Below are positions 2 through 7,217 of a stretch of 7,217 nucleotides of DNA, piece after piece. This stretch comes from Candidatus Scatomorpha stercorigallinarum. Lineage in GTDB: Bacteria; Bacillota_A; Clostridia; Oscillospirales; Oscillospiraceae. Position 1 is the stretch's first letter, and every line of letters begins with the position of its first letter. The DNA lies in NCBI GenBank assembly GCA_018713375.1, contig DVOV01000158.1:1-7217 (forward strand), written 5' to 3'. Below the pieces are notes generated by a model, which did not search any database, was not told the DNA's origin, and saw nothing but the letters and a program-made list of their open reading frames with translations. Made by a program: the position numbers and the translations under genes.

Positions 2-1321
2 GAGTGCCTCAAGGGCTGCGCTTACCTGCGCCACTACGACAAATTCCCGCGCATACTGACGCGCGAGATATACAATAACGCCGGCATCATCATGGGCGAC
101 CACATGATGAACAAAGCGCTCAACTCCTGCGCCCTCTGCGGCCAGTGCACCGTCACCTGCCCCAACGGCTATGACATGGCGGAGATCTGCCTCTCCGCGC
201 GCGAGAATATGGTGGCCACCGGCAAAATGAGCCTGGCCGTACACGAGTTTGCCCTCTATGACCAGATATTCTCCAACGGCGAGGCGTTTTTGTGCCGCAG
301 GCAGCCGGGCTATGAGCGCTGCCGCTATGTGTTCTTCCCCGGCTGCCAGGCCGGCGCCGTGGCCCCGGAGGTCATCGAGCGCGCCTATGCCGACCTCTGC
401 GCCCGCCTGGAGGGCGGCGTGGCGCTCATCCTCGGCTGCTGCGGGGCCGTCTCCCGCTGGGCCGGCCGCACGGAGCTGACAGAGGAGACGGACGGACAGC
501 TGCGCTCCGCGCTGGAGTCCCTCGGCTCGCCGGAGGTCATCGCCGGCTGCCCCACCTGCGCCGTCACGCTGCGCGCTCTCTCCGCCGCCCCCGTGCGCGG
601 CGTCTGGGACACGCTGCTGGATATCGGCCTGCCGGCGACGGCCTCCCACGCCGGCGGCACCGCCGCGCTGCACGACTCCTGCGGCGCGCGCGGGGACGCC
701 TCCACGCAGTCCGCCGTGCGCGAGCTGCTGGGCCGGCTGGGCTTTGAGATAAAAGAGGGCGAATGGAGCGGCGACCGCGCCCCCTGCTGCGGCTACGGCG
801 GGCTGGTGTCCTATGCTGCCCCGCAGGTGGCCTCGGAACTGGCGCGAAGCTGCGTGGAGGCCCCCTCCCTGCCGCAGGTCACCTACTGCATGGCCTGCCG
901 CGACCGCCTCGCGCGCGAGGGCGCTCAGAGCGTGCACCTGCTGGAGCTCGTCTATGGCGTGCAGGCCGCCCAGACGCCCGGCATCAGTGAAAAACGCAGG
1001 AACCGCCTGCTGCTGAAGCAGACGCTGCTGCGGGATATATGGGGTGAGGATGTGCAGAAAAAAGACCTCGGCTTCCGCCTGGACATCACGGACGAGGCCC
1101 GCGCGCTGATGGAAGAGCGCATGATACTGGATACGGACGTACAGCAGGTGATGCAGCGCTACCGCGAGAGCGGCGAGGCCGTGCTGGAAAACGAGAGCGG
1201 CCTGCTGGTGACGCGCGCACGGCTGGGCAACGTCACCTTCTGGGCGAAATTCACCGAGGAGCCGGACGGCTACACCGTCCGCCGCGTTTACAGCCACCGC
1301 ATGACGATAGAGACGAGGTGA
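2..1321 (+). CDS. Fe-S dicluster / CCG-domain redox protein, 5'-truncated (DVU_1558-type)
   Basis: This gene is open at the left edge: the frame runs from base 2 without a start, so the N-terminus is missing and the ATG at 92 is internal. The 439 visible residues begin with Cys2-x3-Cys6, the tail of one [4Fe-4S] motif, followed by a full CxxCxxCxxxCP cluster (Cys43, 46, 49, 53). Two CCG-like modules follow, as in HdrB/HdrD, GlpC and LutA: PGC at Cys115 with CCG at 146-148, then DSCG at Cys227 with CCGYGG at 262-267. The last ~120 residues form a separate tail without cysteine motifs. It is probably a cytoplasmic electron-transfer or disulfide/thiol oxidoreductase subunit. From memory, full-length relatives are annotated as pyridine nucleotide-disulfide oxidoreductase/dicluster-binding proteins, so a flavin domain may lie upstream; that part cannot be seen. 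It is the first visible gene of the operon, 4 bases before the next. Confidence 0.85.
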   Translation, partial: ECLKGCAYLRHYDKFPRILTREIYNNAGIIMGDHMMNKALNSCALCGQCTVTCPNGYDMAEICLSARENMVATGKMSLAVHEFALYDQIFSNGEAFLCRRQPGYERCRYVFFPGCQAGAVAPEVIERAYADLCARLEGGVALILGCCGAVSRWAGRTELTEETDGQLRSALESLGSPEVIAGCPTCAVTLRALSAAPVRGVWDTLLDIGLPATASHAGGTAALHDSCGARGDASTQSAVRELLGRLGFEIKEGEWSGDRAPCCGYGGLVSYAAPQVASELARSCVEAPSLPQVTYCMACRDRLAREGAQSVHLLELVYGVQAAQTPGISEKRRNRLLLKQTLLRDIWGEDVQKKDLGFRLDITDEARALMEERMILDTDVQQVMQRYRESGEAVLENESGLLVTRARLGNVTFWAKFTEEPDGYTVRRVYSHRMTIETR

Positions 1322-1325
1322 GGAC

Positions 1326-1547
1326 ATGCCTGAAGAAAAGAGCTATTACGTCATCGACCCGGAGGGCAAACTGACCTGCCACAAGTGCGGCGTGCCGCTG
1401 GTGAAGGACAACGCCGTGTTTGGCTATCTGGACAACGCCTTCCCCGTGGAGCTGCCCGTCTGCCCCAAATGCGGCTTCGTCTACGTCCCCGAGGAGCTGG
1501 CCATGGGCAAGGTGCTCTCCGTGGAAAAAGTACTGGAGGACAAATGA
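1326..1547 (+). CDS. Small double-CxxC redox/metal-binding protein (DVU_1557-type)
   Basis: A 73-residue protein with two CxxC pairs, CHKC (residues 18-21) and CPKC (46-49), spaced as in a zinc ribbon or rubredoxin-like knuckle. It has no signal peptide or membrane segment, so it should be cytoplasmic. The four cysteines could bind Zn or Fe; the sequence does not decide which. A GAGGTGAGG ribosome site (1315-1323) lies inside the end of the preceding gene, immediately before the ATG. Its stop overlaps the next start (ATGA at 1544-1547), which implies translational coupling. From memory this corresponds to the DVU_1557 family redox protein. Its place between the Fe-S protein and the methyltransferase suggests an electron-carrier or metal-site accessory role, which is an inference. 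Confidence 0.8.
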   Translation: MPEEKSYYVIDPEGKLTCHKCGVPLVKDNAVFGYLDNAFPVELPVCPKCGFVYVPEELAMGKVLSVEKVLEDK

Positions 1548-2068
1548 CCCGCCATCCCGGCGGCGAAGCCGCCACGCTGCGCCTCCTGTCCCTGTCCGGC
1601 ATAGCCCCGCCCTGCCGCGTCGTCGACCTCGGCGCAGGCGATGGGGACGCTGTGCGCGCCCTGCGCGCGCGGGGCTTCGGCGCCGTGGGCATTGACCTCT
1701 CCCCCGGGGCGGATGTGGAGCGCGGCGACATCCTCGCCCCGCCCTTCCCGCCTGGCAGCTTTGACGCGGCGCTCAGCCAGTGCGCCTTCTTCCTCACAGG
1801 CGACGTGCTGGCCGCCTTCCGCGCGGCGTATTCCCTTCTGCGCCCCGGCGGAGTGTTCATGTACTCGGACATCGTCCCCGGCGGCGGGGAGGCATTGCGC
1901 GCCCTCGCGGAAAACGCCGGTTTTTCCCTCGTATCCATCGAGGACACCACGCCGCAGTGGCGTGAATACTACATCCGCGCCCTCTGGCAGGGCGCGGCGG
2001 AGCCGCCGCCAAAAGGAGCAGATATCAGGCGCAGCCGCTATCTCAGCGCCATATTCCGCCGCCCCTGA
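1544..2068 (+). CDS. Class I SAM-dependent methyltransferase (TrsM / DVU_1556-type)
   Basis: A 174-residue Rossmann-fold methyltransferase. The start at 1544 is chosen because it follows GGAGGA (1535-1540) and forms an ATGA overlap with the upstream stop; longer in-frame readings from 1385 would run over the whole preceding gene. Motif I is VVDLGAGDG (residues 26-34), the acidic ribose-binding end of strand 2 is GID (49-51), the GDI motif is at 61-63 with a following SFD (72-74), and LLRPGG (98-103) marks the post-motif-III loop. The N-terminal HPGG (4-7) is, from memory, typical of the DVU_1556/TrsM family. It is shorter than most class I methyltransferases and has little room for a substrate cap, so it may act on a small or partner-bound substrate. 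The substrate is unknown. It could in principle methylate the product of the downstream radical SAM enzyme. Confidence 0.85.
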   Translation: MTRHPGGEAATLRLLSLSGIAPPCRVVDLGAGDGDAVRALRARGFGAVGIDLSPGADVERGDILAPPFPPGSFDAALSQCAFFLTGDVLAAFRAAYSLLRPGGVFMYSDIVPGGGEALRALAENAGFSLVSIEDTTPQWREYYIRALWQGAAEPPPKGADIRRSRYLSAIFRRP

Positions 2069-2095
2069 AGCGGCGGGCGTTCAAAAGGAGGACAC

Positions 2096-2518
2096 ATGGA
2101 CGTATTCGACCGTATGTTGGAACTCGCGCGCGAGGGCTATGACTGCGCGCAGATCATGCTCACCCTCGCCCTGGACATGGACGGCAAGTCCGACCCCGAC
2201 CTCGTGCGCGCGATGGGCGGGCTCAGCCTCGGCGTCGCCGGCGGCGGGGATATCTGCGGCGCGCTCAGCGGCGGGGCCTGCCTGCTGGCCTATTTTGCCG
2301 GCCGCGGCGCCCCGGGCGAGCAGCCCCACCCCAAGCTGGGCGAGATGTACGCCTCCCTCCGCGAGTGGTTCAGCGAATACACCGCCGGCTACGGCGGCGA
2401 CAGCTGCCGCTGCATACTCGCCGGGGACGAGCGCAACCGCGTCATGCGCTGCCCCCTTGTCGTCCAGGCCGTCTTTGAAAAGTGCTGCGGCCTGCTGGAG
2501 ATGAACGGCATCCTCTGA
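2096..2518 (+). CDS. C-GCAxxG-C-C family protein (DVU_1555-type)
   Basis: A 140-residue cysteine-rich protein of the C_GCAxxG_C_C type, usually thought to be a metal- or cluster-binding redox protein. The ordered cysteines are visible: Cys17 (in GYDCAQ), Cys54 followed by GALSGG and Cys62, then Cys104/106, Cys119 and Cys130/131. The central signature reads CGALSGG rather than GCAxxG, so the Gly and Cys are in swapped order. A glycine-rich stretch (AGGGD, 48-52) precedes the signature. There is no signal peptide or membrane span. A strong AAGGAGG site sits a few bases upstream of the ATG and the gap to the methyltransferase is 27 bases, so it is an operon member. The molecular function of the family is unproven; redox support for the radical SAM partner is an inference from context. 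Confidence 0.82.
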   Translation: MDVFDRMLELAREGYDCAQIMLTLALDMDGKSDPDLVRAMGGLSLGVAGGGDICGALSGGACLLAYFAGRGAPGEQPHPKLGEMYASLREWFSEYTAGYGGDSCRCILAGDERNRVMRCPLVVQAVFEKCCGLLEMNGIL

Positions 2519-2543
2519 GCGCCGCGGACAGAAAGGCTCGTAT

Positions 2544-3851
2544 ATGACTCCATTCGCCACCACGACCAGCGTCTGCCCCGTCTGCCTGCGCCCGATACCG
2601 GCGGAAAAGGCGGTCGGGGACGACGGCTTTATCCACCTTGTCAAGACCTGCCCCGAGCACGGGTATTTCGACGTCCTCATCTGGGAGGGCGGCATCGTCG
2701 ATCACCTGCTCTGGAACACCGCCGGCAAGGGCGGCGGCAACCGCCCGCCGGTCACCGTCCCCGCCGCCGCTGACTGCCCGCGCTCCTGCGGCCTCTGTGA
2801 CGAGCACGAGAGCGCTGGCTGCTGCGTGCTGCTGGAGCTGACGGACCGCTGCGGCCTCAAATGCCCCGTCTGCTTCGCCTCCGCCGGCGAGGGCGAGGGC
2901 CGCGACCTCCCGCTGGAGGACGTCGCGCGGCTCTACGACATGCTGATGGCCCGCGGCGGGCCCTTCAACATCCAGCTCTCCGGCGGCGAGCCCACCGTGC
3001 GCGACGACCTGCCGGAGATCGTCGCCCTCGGCCGCGAAAAGGGCTTCAGCTACTTCCAGCTGAACACGAACGGCCTGCGCCTGGCCACGGAGGTCGGCTA
3101 TGCGGAAAAACTGCGCCGCGCGGGCGTCTCCTGCGCCTTTTTGCAGTTCGACGGCCTGGACGACAGCATCTACCGCGTCCTCCGCGGCCGCGCTCTGCTT
3201 TCGCTCAAGCTGAAGGCCGTTGAAAACTGCGCCGCGGCCGGCCTGCCCGTGGTGCTGGTACCCACGCTCGCCCCCGGCGTCAACGACGGCGCGCTGGGCG
3301 ATATCCTGCGCTTCGGCCTGGAACGCATGCCCGCCGTGCGCGGCGTACACATCCAGCCCATCAGCTACTTTGGCCGCTGCGCCCTGCCCGAGCCCGAGCG
3401 CCGCCTAACCATCCCCCGCGTCCTGCGGGAGATCGAGCGCCAGACGGGCGGGCTGATGCGCGTTACCGACTTCGGCGGCGGCGGGGCGGAGAGCTCCTAC
3501 TGCTCCTTCCACGCCAGCTACCGCCGCCGGGCCGACGGCTCGCTGAAGGCCCTCCCCCGCCGACGCGGGGAATGCTGCTGCGTCAAGAGCGCGGACGCCC
3601 GCGACTTCGTCGCCGGCCACTGGGGCGCGCAGGAGGAAGGCGGCGGGCGCGACGGCTTCGACGAATTCCTCGCCGAGGCCCGCGCCAGCACCTTCACCGT
3701 CTCCGGCATGGTGTTCCAGGACGCGATGAACCTCGACCTCGAGCGCCTGCGCCGCTGCCACATCTGCGAAGCCGACCTCGAATACGGCATGGTGCCCTTC
3801 TGCGCCTATAACCTGACGGACACCGCCGGCCGCGCCCTCTACCGCCGATGA
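2544..3851 (+). CDS. trsS: Radical SAM enzyme with extra Cys clusters (TrsS-type, class D methylase-like)
   Basis: A 435-residue radical SAM protein. The cluster motif is CGLKCPVC (Cys103, 107, 110) with SGGEP at 146-150 for SAM binding. Before it are an N-terminal CPVC...CPEHG knuckle (Cys11, 14, 36; His39) and a second motif CPRSCGLCDEHE (Cys78, 82, 85) followed by Cys93/94. This layout is that of the MJ0619-like, class D group, which has members thought to methylate pterins using methylene-tetrahydrofolate as the carbon source. The C-terminal MNLDLERLRRC (395-405) plus Cys408 and Cys420 is the matching tail motif. Some TrsS proteins are selenoproteins, but this one has no in-frame TGA, so it is a cysteine form. 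The ATG at 2544 has an AGAAAGG site at 2530-2536. The stop overlaps the CoA ligase start (ATGA). The substrate is unknown; the trsS symbol is from family memory. Confidence 0.87.
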   Translation: MTPFATTTSVCPVCLRPIPAEKAVGDDGFIHLVKTCPEHGYFDVLIWEGGIVDHLLWNTAGKGGGNRPPVTVPAAADCPRSCGLCDEHESAGCCVLLELTDRCGLKCPVCFASAGEGEGRDLPLEDVARLYDMLMARGGPFNIQLSGGEPTVRDDLPEIVALGREKGFSYFQLNTNGLRLATEVGYAEKLRRAGVSCAFLQFDGLDDSIYRVLRGRALLSLKLKAVENCAAAGLPVVLVPTLAPGVNDGALGDILRFGLERMPAVRGVHIQPISYFGRCALPEPERRLTIPRVLREIERQTGGLMRVTDFGGGGAESSYCSFHASYRRRADGSLKALPRRRGECCCVKSADARDFVAGHWGAQEEGGGRDGFDEFLAEARASTFTVSGMVFQDAMNLDLERLRRCHICEADLEYGMVPFCAYNLTDTAGRALYRR

Positions 3852-5065
3852 TGCGCTCGCGGCTGGACAACTGGATATGCTCCCTCGAGGGCCTTCCCGA
3901 GCTAACGCCCGATGCCCTTGCTGCATTGCAGCTTGAGCGGCTGAACGCGCTGCTCGCGCGAGAGCGCGCTCGCGGCGGCTTTTATTCCGGCCTGCCCGCG
4001 CGGCTCGAGAGCCTTTCCCAGCTCTCCTCCCTGCCCTTCACCACGCCGCGGCAGCTCGCGGAGAACGCCGGCGCCATGCTGCTCTGTTCGCAGTCGGAGA
4101 TAAGCCGCGTCATCAGCGGCGCCACCAGCGGCACCACCGGCCCCGCCAAGCGCGTGTTCTACACGGAGCGCGACATCGCCCACACCGTAGGCTTTTTCGC
4201 CGCCGGCATCGGCGAGTTCACCTCCGCGGGTGACACGGTGATGATAGCCATGCCCTTCTCCGGCCCCTTCGGCCTCGGCGACCTCATCGCCCGCGCCGTC
4301 GAGAGCCTGGGCGCGCGCGCCCTGCGCACGGGCGTGGCGCGCACATATTCATCCCTCTGCGCGGAGCTGGACGATGAGCGCCCCTCCGCCTATATCGGCA
4401 TGCCCGTCCCGCTGCTGGCGACGCTTAGATATTATGTAAACTTAAATGGCCGCCTCCCCTCCCTCCGCCGCGCGCTGATATCCGGCGACGCCTGCCCGCG
4501 CGGCGTCGTACAGGAGATAGAAAAGCTGCTCGGCGGGCCGCTCTTCCCACACTACGGCTCGCGCGAGATGTGCCTCGGCGGCGCCATCACCTGCCCCGCG
4601 CACGAGGGGATGCACCTGCGGGCCAACCACATCCTCGCGGAGATCGTCTCCCCGGAGGGCGAGCCCCTCCCGGACGGCGAATGGGGCGAGCTGGTGATAA
4701 CGACGCTGGACATGGAGGCCCTGCCGCTCATACGCTACCGCACGGGCGACCGCACGCGCTTGCTGCCGGGGCCCTGCCCCTGCGGGAGCTACGCGCCGCG
4801 GCTCGACCGCGTCAGCCGCCTTGACGCGCGCGAGAGCTTCATGGAGCGCCTTGATTCCGCCCTTTTCCCGCTCCCCGGCCTCCTTGACTATGATGCCCGC
4901 CTGCTTCCCGGCCGGCTTGAAATATCCGCCGTCACGCTGGACGGCCGGGACGGCGGCCTTGCCGCCGCGGCCGCGCCGCTGCTGCCCGGCGCGGAGATAT
5001 CCGTCTCCTGCCGCCGCGCGGACGGCGGCGGCGTCCCCTCCCCGCGCAAGCGGACGCTGCTTTGA
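3848..5065 (+). CDS. AMP-forming CoA ligase, PaaK/phenylacetate-CoA ligase-like (DVU_1553-type)
   Basis: A 405-residue member of the adenylate-forming superfamily, closest in layout to phenylacetate-CoA ligase. Visible motifs are the phosphate loop SGATSGTTGPAK (90-101), HYGSREM (235-241; the A5-like aromatic-Gly...Glu signature) and the A7/A8 hinge IRYRTGD (295-301), followed by CPCG and a conserved RLDRVSRLD. It would activate a carboxylate as an acyl-AMP and transfer it to CoA or another thiol. It is a little shorter than typical PaaK, with a brief C-terminal lobe ending in a basic RKR; a catalytic A10 lysine cannot be assigned with certainty. The start overlaps the radical SAM stop (ATGA at 3848; a second ATG at 3851 is possible). 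It is the last gene of the operon. The acid substrate cannot be read from the sequence. Confidence 0.85.
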   Translation: MMRSRLDNWICSLEGLPELTPDALAALQLERLNALLARERARGGFYSGLPARLESLSQLSSLPFTTPRQLAENAGAMLLCSQSEISRVISGATSGTTGPAKRVFYTERDIAHTVGFFAAGIGEFTSAGDTVMIAMPFSGPFGLGDLIARAVESLGARALRTGVARTYSSLCAELDDERPSAYIGMPVPLLATLRYYVNLNGRLPSLRRALISGDACPRGVVQEIEKLLGGPLFPHYGSREMCLGGAITCPAHEGMHLRANHILAEIVSPEGEPLPDGEWGELVITTLDMEALPLIRYRTGDRTRLLPGPCPCGSYAPRLDRVSRLDARESFMERLDSALFPLPGLLDYDARLLPGRLEISAVTLDGRDGGLAAAAAPLLPGAEISVSCRRADGGGVPSPRKRTLL

Positions 5066-5073
5066 ACAGCATG

Positions 5074-5102
5074 AAAAAAAGGCCCGTCACCGGGCCTTTT
5101 TT
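5074..5102. terminator. Bidirectional intrinsic terminator between convergent genes
   Basis: A perfect hairpin GGCCCG-TCAC-CGGGCC (5081-5096) is flanked by seven A on the left and six T on the right, so it works as a rho-independent terminator in either direction. The symmetry extends outward to ATG/CAT (5071-5105). It starts 9 bases after the CoA ligase stop, and on the other strand it contains the stop codon region of the M23 gene (5102-5104). It closes the + strand operon and the - strand SpoIIQ-like unit. Confidence 0.93.
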
Positions 5103-5890
5103 CATCTTACGGGCAGATATGCCGTGGGATCGACGCTCTCTCCGTTCACCCTCATGGCAAAGTGCAGGTGATAGGGCGAGTTCGTCTCGCAGATGGCCGT
5201 CGTGCCGACGGAGCCGATGGTGTCCCCCAGCGACACACTGTCCCCCGCCACCACAGTCGGCAGCGCGGCCAGGTTGGAGTATACGCTGACGATGCCCGCG
5301 CCGTGGTCGATGACCACCGTCGTGCCATAGAGCCCGTCGTCATATACCTCCGTCACCGTGCCGCCGGCGGCGGCCTTCACCGGTTCGCCCAGCGGGGCGA
5401 GGATGTCCAGCCCGTCGTGCGTGCGCCAGTCGCCCATCGTGCGGTCATAGGCCAGCGTGTCCATGATATAGCCCACGTCCACCTCCCCGCTGAGCGGCCA
5501 GCCATAAGTCGCGGGGCCCGTCTCCTCCTGCGCCGGCTCCTCCTGCACGGCCGGCTGCTCTGACGGCTCTTCTGCCGCCACCTCCGGCGGCTCCGGCTGC
5601 GGCTCGGCGATGACCTCCACAGCATCCTCCGGCACCTGCCACTCCGTCTCGTCTGCCTCCGGCGTCGCCGCCGGCGTGGGCGCGGGAGTCACGGCCGCTG
5701 GCGTGGGCGCCGCGGTGGCAGAAAGCGAGATGTCGCCGATGTCGTCCTTCTGCACAGTCCTATTCCCGCTCAGCAGGCTCCAGGCCGAAACGCCGATCAC
5801 CGCCGCGCAGAGGAAAAGGACTATGTAGAAGCCCTTCCCATTAAAAAAGCCGTCCAGCTTGCCGCCGGAACCCTTGTTATTTTCGTCCAT
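5102..5890 (-). CDS. M23-family metallopeptidase-fold protein, SpoIIQ-like, membrane anchored
   Basis: A 262-residue protein starting at the ATG at 5890, which lies 7 bases after GGAGG; a GTG directly before it (5893) would be too close to that site. A short cytoplasmic N-terminus is followed by one hydrophobic segment (about residues 20-40, GFYIVLFLCAAVIGV), then a Pro/Ala/Glu/Thr-rich linker (about 55-125) and a LytM/M23 domain (about 130-262). Zinc ligands are present: His158 and Asp162 (HDGLD), and HLH with His241/His243. The third conserved histidine, usual in a YxHL motif, is Asn206 (YSNL). The single N-terminal membrane anchor, the linker and this pattern resemble clostridial SpoIIQ, the forespore partner of SpoIIIAH in the engulfment channel. 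A general cell-wall M23 endopeptidase is the alternative. It is convergent with the operon and ends inside the shared terminator. Confidence 0.85.
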   Translation of the reverse strand: MDENNKGSGGKLDGFFNGKGFYIVLFLCAAVIGVSAWSLLSGNRTVQKDDIGDISLSATAAPTPAAVTPAPTPAATPEADETEWQVPEDAVEVIAEPQPEPPEVAAEEPSEQPAVQEEPAQEETGPATYGWPLSGEVDVGYIMDTLAYDRTMGDWRTHDGLDILAPLGEPVKAAAGGTVTEVYDDGLYGTTVVIDHGAGIVSVYSNLAALPTVVAGDSVSLGDTIGSVGTTAICETNSPYHLHFAMRVNGESVDPTAYLPVR

Positions 5891-5895
5891 CACGA

Positions 5896-6042: not shown

Positions 6043-6351
6043 TCACCCCTCCCGGCCCCAGAAATCGTACTTGCAGACCGGGCACTTCGGGTAGTCAAAA
6101 TCTATTACAGCGCCGCATTTGGGACACTTTTTCTGCGGCAGTTCCCCGGAATCCACGCCTTCTATCTCGCCCTCCGGCAGGAACAGCTCCACCTTGCCGC
6201 AGCCTTTGCAGACGTACACGTCGAGCTCCATAGCCCCAGCCAGCAAATTCGGCCAGTCGCCGAGTATCCACCCGGTGCGTCCCAGCTGGAAATCCTCCCG
6301 GCTCATGAACTGCATGTCCTCGCCGCAGCGCAGGCACTTCAACTTCCGCAT
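6043..6351 (-). CDS. Small zinc-ribbon protein of unknown function
   Basis: A 102-residue protein with four CxxC pairs: CLRC (6-9), CKGC (48-51), CPKC (76-79) and CPVC (90-93). These would make two zinc ribbons, one formed by the first two pairs and one by the last two. Between the first pairs is a conserved-looking QLGRTGWILGDWPNLLAGA segment (22-40). There is no signal peptide or membrane helix. Small proteins of this layout are common in Firmicutes and have no known function that I can name. A strong GGAGGTG site (6357-6363) precedes the ATG. No terminator is visible between it and the M23 gene 150 bases downstream, so the two may be partly co-transcribed. Confidence 0.8.
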   Translation of the reverse strand: MRKLKCLRCGEDMQFMSREDFQLGRTGWILGDWPNLLAGAMELDVYVCKGCGKVELFLPEGEIEGVDSGELPQKKCPKCGAVIDFDYPKCPVCKYDFWGREG

Positions 6352-6425: not shown

Positions 6426-6459
6426 AAAACACCCCGGGATCTCACCCGGGGTGTTTTTT
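6426..6459 (-). terminator. Intrinsic terminator downstream of enolase
   Basis: A 13-bp perfect stem (6426-6438 with 6445-6457, core CACCCCGGG) with a 6-base loop lies 14 bases past the enolase stop. In the enolase direction the T-run is only TTTT and is part of the stem, then GCTTGC; on the + strand the run is six T. It is probably the enolase terminator and could also stop + strand read-through. Confidence 0.8.
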
Positions 6460-6472
6460 GATATTAAAGCGA

Positions 6473-7138
6473 TTACTTGCTGAGGTTGAAGAAAGCGTCC
6501 TTGCCGGCGTACTGCGCGACGTCGAAGAGCTCCTCCTCGATGCGGAGCAGCTGGTTGTACTTGCAGACGCGGTCGGTGCGGCTGGGGGCGCCGGTCTTGA
6601 TCTGGCCGGTGTTCAGGCCCACGACGAGGTCGGCGATGGTGGTGTCCTCGGTCTCGCCGGAGCGGTGGGACACGACGGTGGTGTAGCCGTGGCGGTTGGC
6701 GAGCTGGATGGTATCCAGGGTCTCGGTCAGGGTGCCGATCTGGTTGACCTTGATCAGGACGGAGTTGGCGACGTGCTTCTCCAGGCCGGTCTTGACGCGC
6801 TCGACGTTGGTGACGAACAGGTCGTCGCCGACGAGCTGCACGCGGTCGCCCAGGGCCTTGGTGAGCATGCTCCAGCCTTCCCAGTCGTCCTCGCCCATGC
6901 AGTCCTCCATGGAGATGATGGGGTAGGTGTCGGCGAACTTCTTCCACATGTTGACCATCTGCTGGCGGGTCATGGTCTTCTTGGCCTTCGGCAGAGTGTA
7001 GGTGCCGTCCTCGTGGTTGTACCAATCCGAAACGGCGGCGTCGATGGCGAGCATGAAGTCCTCGCCGGGCTTGTAGCCGGCTTCCTCAATGGCCTTGACG
7101 ATGCACTTGAAGGCGTCCTCGTCCTTCTTCAGGTTGGG
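6473..7138 (-). CDS. eno: Enolase, C-terminal half only
   Basis: Phosphopyruvate hydratase, the glycolytic enzyme that converts 2-phosphoglycerate to phosphoenolpyruvate. The visible 221 residues cover the C-terminal part of the TIM-barrel, about half of the usual ~430. They begin at PNLK, which in the family follows the GDEGGFA motif. Numbering from that proline, the Mg ligands are Asp33 (LAID), Glu78 (SMED) and Asp105 (VGDD). The catalytic base is Lys130 (IKVNQIG), His158 and the [10 protein letters not shown] loop bind substrate, and Lys181 (GQIKTG) is present. The reading frame is intact to the normal end, FFNLSK. Codon use is less extremely GC-rich than the operon's, as expected for a highly expressed gene. 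The 5' half is absent because the sequence switches to unrelated DNA at about 7138; the ATG at 7054 is internal and not a real start. Confidence 0.95.
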
Positions 7139-7140
7139 CC
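7135..7140. other. Chimeric junction between enolase and hydrogenase-protease sequence
   Basis: Enolase homology is valid up to PNLK (proline codon 7138-7136), while the HycI-type frame is valid up to GP (codons 7140-7135). The two share the bases TGGG(CC) at 7135-7140 and lie in different frames. Base composition changes here from GC-rich to strongly AT-rich. This is the pattern of a short-overlap misassembly at a contig end. Confidence 0.75.
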
Positions 7141-7217
7141 AACACCATCATCACATTTAAGTTCATTACCAACTCCCAAAATTAGTAACTTTTCATAATC
7201 TTGTAAAAACTCAAATT
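7135..7217 (-). CDS. Hydrogenase maturation protease (HycI-type), N-terminal fragment from AT-rich DNA
   Basis: On the - strand from 7215 the frame reads [16 protein letters not shown] and then [11 protein letters not shown], ending at 7135. GVGN...DDGVGP is the N-terminal signature of nickel-hydrogenase maturation proteases (HycI/HyaD/HybD), in which the Glu and Asp help sense Ni. These enzymes remove the C-terminal peptide of the hydrogenase large subunit after Ni insertion. The start codon lies off the window. The family position that is usually Gly before DDG is Cys here. The codons are strongly AT-rich (TTA, ATT, AAA, GAT), unlike everything else in the window, and the wording resembles methanogen versions such as Methanobrevibacter. 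The frame meets a TGA (7131-7129) right after the switch into enolase DNA, so the gene is cut off. Confidence 0.7.

What the first reader, a model, noticed from the sequence alone, without database searches (positions are those of the whole stretch)
2..5065. Six-gene radical SAM / CoA ligase / Fe-S operon of unknown function
The genes are packed with two ATGA overlaps and no gap over 27 bases, so they are made together. They combine a class D-like radical SAM enzyme, a small methyltransferase, an acyl-adenylate enzyme and three cysteine-rich redox proteins. From memory, the order equals DVU_1558 to DVU_1553 of Desulfovibrio vulgaris, so the module is conserved between distant phyla without a known product. 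A workable hypothesis is synthesis or modification of a small cofactor, perhaps linked to molybdenum hydroxylases or selenium use, since relatives are named for closeness to selenoprotein genes. That link is inference and is not shown here.
Basis: partly seen in the sequence, partly recalled or inferred. Interest (0 to 1): 0.75.

Follow-up and report, generated by a model that had tools for sequence, protein, structure and literature searches.

The report
Helper genes for molybdenum aldehyde enzyme
The window carries most of a conserved set of six closely packed genes that in its relatives sits beside the gene for a molybdenum enzyme that oxidises aldehydes, so the set is most likely that enzyme's electron partner and custom-made helper chemistry, whose exact product is not known.

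Summary
Six same-strand genes fill 2-5065 (gaps 4, -4, 27, 25, -4; two ATGA overlaps); gene 1 is cut by the contig edge. Each best matches NCBIfam's curated 'Trs' set (dicluster flavoprotein, DVU_1557, 1556, 1555, TrsS, DVU_1553); the methyltransferase is below its cut-off. The set is thus named already; I found no paper giving it a function.

New here: the set goes with one molybdenum enzyme, the MOP-type aldehyde oxidoreductase (AOR) crystallised from Desulfovibrio gigas. In 61 of 61 testable relatives the AOR lies upstream of gene 1; of 169 genomes of the phylum, 13 have TrsS, all 13 with this AOR (13 of 15 AOR genomes; p about 1e-17). The selenium idea is not supported: yqeB in 6 of 13, and the selD excess is not significant among genomes with such enzymes.

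The parts
2..1321 (+). diclust: C-terminal 439 aa of a pyridine nucleotide-disulfide oxidoreductase / dicluster protein with two complete CCG-type motifs (C..CC..CxxC); its N-terminal flavoprotein half lies beyond base 1
   Evidence: NF045663 538.5 bits, model 313-758/759; CCG and Fer4 Pfam hits; Cys 115/146-147/183-186 and 227/262-263/296-299, conserved in every row that covers them of 79; full-length relative L065 carries Fer4_20 and GltD-like matches
1326..1547 (+). DVU_1557 family: 73-aa four-cysteine (CxxC...CPxC) ribbon protein with a nearly invariant C-terminus ...VExxLEDK
   Evidence: NF045645 92.8 bits/60, DUF7479; [LM]EDK at the very end in 83 of 84 rows
1544..2068 (+). TrsM (DVU_1556) SAM methyltransferase with invariant PGG motif and invariant Cys80
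   Evidence: NF045667 105.2 bits, cut-off 155 not reached; P5 G6 G7 C80 invariant in 24 rows
2096..2518 (+). DVU_1555 family C-GCAxxG-C-C protein, cysteine-rich and all-helical; iron-sulphur role inferred
2544..3851 (+). TrsS radical SAM enzyme: rubredoxin-like site, N-terminal and radical-SAM 4Fe-4S sites as in tetraether synthase, C-terminal cluster region kept in part
3848..5065 (+). DVU_1553 family PaaK-like acyl-adenylate/CoA ligase
   Evidence: NF045666 339.2/300; nearest solved relative PaaK 4r1l E 3e-29; K401 R402 in every row that covers them of 88, possible Zn site C249 H256 C310 C312 in 85-86 of 87
5072..5104 (+). terminator-like hairpin closing the operon, facing the convergent downstream gene
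   Evidence: fold -18.2 kcal/mol with T-run

Best explanation
The six genes are the accessory half of a molybdenum aldehyde-oxidoreductase unit; the AOR gene should lie just upstream of base 1. Shown: in relatives the set is physically and phylogenetically tied to the MOP-type AOR, and molybdenum-cofactor genes (MocA-like NTP transferase, XdhC-type factor, phosphatase/HD protein) share its operon in several genomes. Inferred: (1) AOR oxidises an aldehyde to the acid at its Mo-pterin site; AOR has no flavin domain, and the flavoprotein diclust next door is its NAD(P)-linked partner, with the four-cysteine DVU_1557 ribbon as shuttle. (2) The same relay feeds TrsS, whose surface rubredoxin-like and N-terminal 4Fe-4S sites hand electrons to its radical-SAM cluster. 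(3) TrsS does tetraether-synthase-type radical chemistry, with its Met-ligated C-terminal cluster as partner, on a polar substrate and not on a lipid; TrsM methylates and the PaaK-like ligase activates a carboxylate of the same molecule, which serves the AOR as cofactor, activator or modification. Steps 1-2 are more likely than step 3.
For: AOR (NF045668) upstream of and co-directional with diclust in 61 of 61 loci with at least 400 bp upstream, 55 within 400 bp. 169 genomes: TrsS in 13 (12 over cut-off plus one cut by a contig edge), AOR in 15 (13 over cut-off plus two contig-edge fragments), overlap 13, Fisher 1.1e-17. Second sample: 12 further TrsS places, 10 with AOR, diclust, 1557, TrsM, 1555, TrsS and ligase in one run (scored with my own profiles). 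In L106 and L161 NTP transferase and XdhC sit inside the run. The AOR is the D. gigas/D. desulfuricans kind (1sij 1165 bits, 1dgj 1178 bits). The highest-scoring TrsS-like subfamily lies next to a different molybdopterin enzyme (MopB type) in 4 of 4 genomes. Tes Tyr459 is E, V, F or I in 29 of 29 TrsS, against a lipid substrate. In D. vulgaris AOR is DVU_1559 and a cysteine-rich Fe-S protein DVU1558.
Against: D. gigas AOR purified from native cells carries an ordinary pyranopterin cytidine dinucleotide without sulfido ligand (PMC3877041, passages), so a lasting covalent change of that cofactor is not seen (whether D. gigas has Trs was not tested). For D. [quoted passage not shown] TrsS-TrsM relatives form a pair in haloarchaea and Mycolicibacterium with no molybdenum enzyme annotated within 6-7 kb (that gene table is incomplete). 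One of 12 further TrsS genomes (G362) shows no AOR over cut-off, and two AOR genomes (G078, G088) no TrsS over cut-off. A CoA ligase fits a catabolic pathway equally well. In the window itself the AOR cannot be seen.
Confidence: 0.5

Rival explanations
1. Metabolic pathway: AOR turns a specific aldehyde into an acid, the PaaK-like ligase makes the acyl-CoA, and TrsS/TrsM make or remodel the substrate; no role in maturing the enzyme.
For: A PaaK-like ligase that keeps the C-terminal lysine (PaaK 4r1l E 3e-29) beside an aldehyde-oxidising enzyme is the natural pair aldehyde to acid to acyl-CoA; TrsS-TrsM pairs exist without annotated Mo enzymes nearby.
Against: Of the recurrent neighbour clusters that I annotated, most serve molybdenum: NTP transferase, phosphatase/HD, XdhC, ModA, ModB, a ModC/PhnT-like ATPase, a molybdopterin-synthesis domain. 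Not molybdenum: a TylF-like methyltransferase (15 loci), a DUF5714 protein (8), a Crp-type regulator (5), and three clusters (9, 17, 21) with no family, so a catabolic gene is not excluded.
Confidence: 0.26
2. DVU_1557 is not just a shuttle but the protein substrate: its invariant C-terminal tail is adenylated, methylated or radical-modified by the ligase, TrsM and TrsS.
For: [LM]EDK ends the protein in 83 of 84 relatives and LEDK in 10 of 11 of a second set (LEEK in the other), although identity to the window falls to 38%; E71 D72 K73 are invariant in the 21-row alignment.
Against: DVU_1557 stays next to diclust (67 of 68 within 300 bp) also where TrsS is moved away (L112), which fits an electron shuttle with a docking tail. 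PaaK-like ligases normally act on small acids.
Confidence: 0.1
3. The set serves selenium use (selenium-dependent molybdenum hydroxylases).
For: Some TrsS are selenoproteins (PMC13188914 table, passages); selD in 13 of 13 TrsS genomes; a cysteine desulfurase whose best model is the EF2568 type sits between DVU_1555 and TrsS in five relatives; a DUF5714 protein with a weak match to the selenoprotein model MbdU recurs in 8 of 80 loci.
Against: yqeB in 6 of 13, no enrichment; the selD excess is not significant within XO-family-positive genomes. The window trsS and every TrsS over cut-off have no in-frame stop, so none of those is a selenoprotein.
Confidence: 0.06
4. TrsS makes membrane-spanning bacterial lipids, as has been proposed for bacterial Tes homologues.
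Against: Tyr459, invariant in 1000 archaeal homologues (PMC9433317, passages), is absent in 29 of 29 TrsS; between the two aligned blocks Tes has 117 residues, window TrsS 65; NF045702 cut-off not reached (299 vs 450); no lipid gene among the annotated recurrent neighbours. Other TrsS-like genes do lie near Lgt-like genes.
Confidence: 0.04

Closest known systems
NCBIfam Trs set (NF045663, NF045645, NF045667, NF045669, NF045646, NF045666; with NF045664, NF045665, NF045668)
   Same: All six window proteins best match it; the three further families are found around the operon in relatives
   Different: Window methyltransferase below cut-off; the window copy does not reach the AOR because the contig ends
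Tetraether lipid synthase Tes / GDGT-MAS (7tol, 7tom)
   Same: Fold, rubredoxin-like CxxC...CxxH site, N-terminal 4Fe-4S CxxxCxxC plus His, radical-SAM CxxxCxxC, labile Met
   Different: Tyr459 replaced, shorter middle region, different operon
Aldehyde oxidoreductase MOP of Desulfovibrio gigas and D. desulfuricans
   Same: The AOR next to the operon in relatives is this kind, 1165-1178 bits over the full length
   Different: Not itself in the window; no Trs partner is mentioned in the passages that I saw on the Desulfovibrio enzyme
Phenylacetate-CoA ligase PaaK
   Same: Adenylation domain, likely zinc site, C-terminal lysine
   Different: Below PaaK's own cut-off (99 vs 646); substrate unknown
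Selenium-dependent molybdenum hydroxylase trait (yqeB, selD)
   Same: Also a helper set for xanthine-oxidase-family enzymes with MobA-like and XdhC-like genes (PMC2432076, passages)
   Different: No co-occurrence with yqeB beyond chance

Membership tests
NCBIfam Trs gene set | each protein over the curated cut-off | tested here: inconclusive
   five of six over cut-off; NF045667 105.2 against 155
NCBIfam Trs gene set | gene order of the set | tested here: met
   same order as in the related loci and in the DVU numbers of the models
AOR-linked Trs operon | MOP-type AOR next to diclust | not testable with these tools
   window starts inside diclust; 61 of 61 testable relatives have it upstream, among them the close ones L002 and L003
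Tetraether synthase Tes | rubredoxin-like, N-terminal and radical-SAM cluster ligands | tested here: met
   C11 C14 C36 H39, C78 C82 C85 H88, C103 C107 C110 in 29 of 29; ligands named in PMC9433317 (passages)
Tetraether synthase Tes | labile Met439 | tested here: met
   M389 in the window, M in 27 of 29
Tetraether synthase Tes | Tyr459 | tested here: not met
   E409 here; E 16, V 11, F 1, I 1 of 29
Tetraether synthase Tes | NF045702 curated cut-off 450 | tested here: not met
   299.4 bits
Selenium-dependent molybdenum hydroxylase trait | co-occurrence with yqeB | tested here: not met
   6 of 13 against 48 of 156, p 0.20
Selenoprotein TrsS | in-frame UGA in trsS | tested here: not met
   window trsS has no internal stop
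CCG proteins of the HdrB kind | two C...CC...CxxC motifs | tested here: met
   cluster content not testable; the likeness to HdrB is recalled
Split-Soret cytochrome c | fold | tested here: inconclusive
Split-Soret cytochrome c | haem c motif CxxCH | tested here: not met
   no CxxCH in the 140 aa (translation)
Phenylacetate-CoA ligase PaaK | TIGR02155 cut-off 646.3 | tested here: not met
   99.2 bits

The most novel reading that the evidence does not exclude
The Trs operon makes a previously unknown prosthetic group or protein modification for a classic molybdenum enzyme: DVU_1557 is the carrier whose invariant C-terminal LEDK tail is worked on by the ligase, the TrsM methyltransferase and the tetraether-synthase-like radical enzyme TrsS, which would be a new reaction for that enzyme fold.
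Probability: 0.1. Interest if true: 0.85.

Novelty: new member of a known kind. Interest (0 to 1): 0.5.

Why it matters
The D. gigas aldehyde oxidoreductase is a textbook molybdenum enzyme; its physiological flavin partner is taken to be flavodoxin from in vitro reconstitution and docking. If its conserved neighbours are its dedicated partner and helpers, both its electron acceptor and an unassigned radical-SAM chemistry become testable by deletions in D. vulgaris. A Tes-like fold used away from lipids would also widen what that radical enzyme family is known to do, and would caution against reading bacterial Tes homologues as lipid synthases.

Tried and rejected
Selenium link: tested by profiling against yqeB and selD; not supported once restricted to genomes with xanthine-oxidase-family genes. 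Position of Sec in TrsS selenoproteins: no TrsS over cut-off has an in-frame stop, so it could not be read. D. vulgaris and other Desulfobacterota: no genome handle could be reached; the single genome-contig scan kept 80 of 442 relatives, Oscillospirales and other Bacillota as far as the titles tell, so that sample is biased to close kin; the 169- and 398-genome samples partly repair this. The 199-genome sample around G003 returned mostly the same genomes and is not counted separately. Foldseek alone found nothing for DVU_1555 (best E 3.1); the split-Soret row came from VIA-align. ArsM-type reading of TrsM (its invariant Cys sits where, from recall, arsenite methyltransferases have one): ArsM chains are among the profile hits (E about 2e-14), but phosphoethanolamine methyltransferases score higher and I saw no residue alignment to ArsM, also not, so I dropped it. 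L003: the stretch between AOR and diclust was read but its genes were not settled. Paper library, all ten searches: 11, 12, 16, 18, 19, 34, 56, 81, 97, 101. For Trs function (11, 12, 19, 34, 97, 101) I found only the name TrsS/NF045646 in a table of PMC13188914 and three papers that print DVU1558 or DVU_1559; one search held 89 papers of which 12 were listed, held 18 of which 8 were listed. Seen as passages only: PMC9433317, PMC8941075, PMC2432076, PMC10223205, PMC3877041, PMC13188914, PMC10920352, PMC11784015, PMC4287179, PMC3114432; others only as search listings.
Full report
Observation. Six genes on the + strand fill 2-5065 with gaps of 4, -4, 27, 25 and -4 bases and two ATGA overlaps. The first is cut by the contig edge: it holds positions 313-758 of a 759-position model. 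A hairpin with a T-run at 5072-5104 (-18.2 kcal/mol) separates the run from a convergent peptidase gene.

Identity. Against NCBIfam the six best hits are one family set: diclust_near_Sec 538.5 bits (cut-off 530), DVU_1557 92.8 (60), MTase_DVU1556 105.2 (155, not reached), DVU1555 C-GCAxxG-C-C 141.1 (103), TrsS 544 (490), DVU1553 AMP ligase 339.2 (300). So this is a new copy of a set that NCBI curators have already named. Searches of the paper library for TrsS, TrsM, DVU locus tags, the model accession and related words gave no paper on its function: a table entry for the selenoprotein form of TrsS and three papers that print DVU1558 or DVU_1559; searches added nothing on it.

Neighbourhoods, close kin. 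A scan of genome contigs with a 20-row TrsS alignment gave 442 relatives; the best 80 were kept. In these, TrsS is present in 80, DVU_1555 in 77, ligase in 77, methyltransferase in 72, DVU_1557 in 70 and diclust in 69; many contigs end inside the run. Pairs within 300 bp: diclust-1557 67 of 68, 1557-methyltransferase 70 of 70, methyltransferase-1555 71 of 73, 1555-TrsS 70 of 77, TrsS-ligase 75 of 77. In L045 and L047 DVU_1555 lies about 9 kb upstream; their TrsS-ligase failure comes from a second hit, the genes being adjacent. In five loci (L002, L008, L042, L060, L066) about 1.4 kb between 1555 and TrsS hold a cysteine desulfurase (for L042 best model TIGR01977, 300 bits, cut-off 377) and, in some, a 94-aa protein without family. 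The window has no such insert.

The enzyme upstream. In all 61 loci with diclust and at least 400 bp upstream, a molybdopterin aldehyde oxidoreductase (NF045668, 1530 bits for L037) lies upstream on the same strand, within 400 bp in 55; in the other six (L002, L003, L004, L005, L009, L066) 1.6 to 4.6 kb intervene. By sequence it is the enzyme crystallised from D. gigas (1sij and others, 1165 bits) and D. desulfuricans (1dgj, 1178 bits). Recurrent neighbours that I annotated: a MocA-like NTP transferase, in L080 joined to a ModE-type domain, a phosphatase/HD protein, an XdhC-type maturation factor, ModA, ModB, an ABC ATPase nearest to PhnT2 and ModC (below both cut-offs) and a molybdopterin-synthesis domain protein; also a TylF-like methyltransferase (15 loci), a DUF5714 protein (8) and a Crp-type regulator (5); clusters 9, 17 and 21 have no family. 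In D. vulgaris the AOR is printed as DVU_1559 (PMC10920352 and PMC11784015, passages) and DVU1558 as a cysteine-rich, iron-sulphur cluster-binding protein (PMC3114432, passage), which is what diclust looks like; I could not open that genome.

Phylogenetic profile. In 169 genomes drawn evenly from the phylum of a Blautia genome, TrsS is over cut-off in 12; I added G077 (469 bits, cut by the contig edge), making 13. I did not count four lower-scoring places (a further copy in G047, G129, G088, G110). AOR is over cut-off in 13; I added two contig-edge fragments (G078, G081), making 15. Overlap 13, Fisher one-sided 1.1e-17. G078 and G088 have AOR without TrsS over cut-off. diclust is over cut-off in 12 of the 13 TrsS genomes and in three others; the ligase in 10 of 13, with G035 and G077 below at 281 and 275 bits. 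yqeB: 6 of 13 against 48 of 156 (p 0.20). selD: 13 of 13 against 106 of 156 (p 0.0085); but selD goes with any xanthine-oxidase-family gene (71 of 82 against 48 of 87), and within those 82 genomes the TrsS-selD excess has p 0.13 and yqeB p 0.96.

Second sample. Gene maps of distant genomes (L103-L116) show the same genes reshuffled; in L106 NTP transferase and XdhC lie between TrsS and DVU_1555. A search of 398 genomes with a TrsS-like profile brought 12 TrsS places outside the first sample; 10 have AOR, diclust, 1557, methyltransferase, 1555, TrsS and ligase in one run (1555 weak, 39 bits, in L171) (own profiles). The two exceptions: G321 has an AOR over cut-off elsewhere in the genome, G362 none.

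TrsS relatives. A tree of 43 rows puts the 29 TrsS together (100/100), apart from Tes, three 'like2' rows, four 'like3' rows and six plasmid rows; the order between the groups nearest TrsS is unresolved and Tes, a long branch, was entered as joined segments. 'like2' scores highest of the relatives with the TrsS profile (380-404 bits, next 350) and lies next to a MopB-type molybdopterin enzyme in 4 of 4 genomes (L119, L123, L124, L159), a second tie to a molybdenum or tungsten enzyme. Relatives on plasmids of haloarchaea and Mycolicibacterium are followed directly by a TrsM-like methyltransferase with the PGG and EC motifs at all seven sites with annotation (two of them copies on one plasmid, one with a TrsS-like gene split into two frames), and no molybdenum enzyme is annotated within 6-7 kb. 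The eighth site, unannotated (Persicobacter, L128), gave no TrsM match. TrsS-TrsM seems to be an older working pair.

How it works. The relay may also reduce TrsS; TrsS, TrsM and ligase tailor a small molecule for the enzyme. The native D. gigas cofactor is plain pyranopterin cytidine dinucleotide without sulfido ligand, and its activity depends on the redox state of the dithiolene (PMC3877041, passages): this speaks against a lasting change of the pterin and leaves reductive activation by the diclust relay as an attractive but untested idea. Rivals are an aldehyde-to-acyl-CoA pathway (0.26), modification of the DVU_1557 tail (0.1), selenium (0.06) and lipids (0.04).

Verdict. A real, well-conserved operon, correctly seen. 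It is a new member of a named set; what is added is its tight link to one classic molybdenum enzyme, the failure of the selenium link, the Tes fold without the Tes tyrosine, and a nearly invariant C-terminal tail on DVU_1557 that offers a direct test.

Noticed in passing
window 7139-7217: Contig end looks chimeric: GC drops from 60% to 29% in the middle of the minus-strand enolase gene, and the last bases read on the minus strand as ...[18 protein letters not shown], which from recall resembles a hydrogenase maturation protease of another, AT-rich organism.
   Followed up: partly
window 5105-5893 (-), 6043-6351 (-), 6476-7054 (-): Downstream genes on the other strand: an M23 peptidase whose best NCBIfam hit is SpoIIQ (66 bits, cut-off 250), a small zinc-ribbon protein without NCBIfam hit, and partial enolase.
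   Followed up: no
window 6426-6457: Strong terminator-like hairpin readable on both strands (13 pairs) between enolase and the zinc-ribbon gene.
   Followed up: no
L119:7145-8464, L123:838-2124, L124:5746-7098, L159 around 6786: A TrsS-like subfamily sits directly beside a MopB-type molybdopterin oxidoreductase in 4 of 4 genomes.
   Followed up: yes
L125, L126, L127, L129-L132: Haloarchaeal and Mycolicibacterium plasmids carry a TrsS-like plus TrsM-like gene pair, in several near redoxin, DUF547 or DUF3179 genes; no function known to me.
   Followed up: partly
L002, L008, L042, L060, L066, between DVU_1555 and TrsS: Inserted cysteine desulfurase (L042: EF2568-type best model), in some followed by a 94-aa protein with no family hit.
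   Followed up: partly
L080:2251-3186 and L065:142-1188: The DVU_1551-type NTP transferase looks split: in L080 the MocA-like domain is joined to a ModE-like DNA-binding domain, in L065 a phosphatase to the HD domain.
   Followed up: no
L120, L121: More distant TrsS-like genes beside a prolipoprotein diacylglyceryl transferase-like gene, a possible lipid-linked branch of the family.
   Followed up: no
L063:3330-3590 and 20 further loci: A frame of about 86 aa upstream of the AOR recurs in 21 of 80 loci (cluster 9) and has no NCBIfam or Pfam hit.
   Followed up: partly
L076:12559-13383 and 7 further loci: A DUF5714 protein with a partial, below-cut-off match to the selenoprotein model MbdU recurs just downstream of the operon in some relatives.
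   Followed up: no
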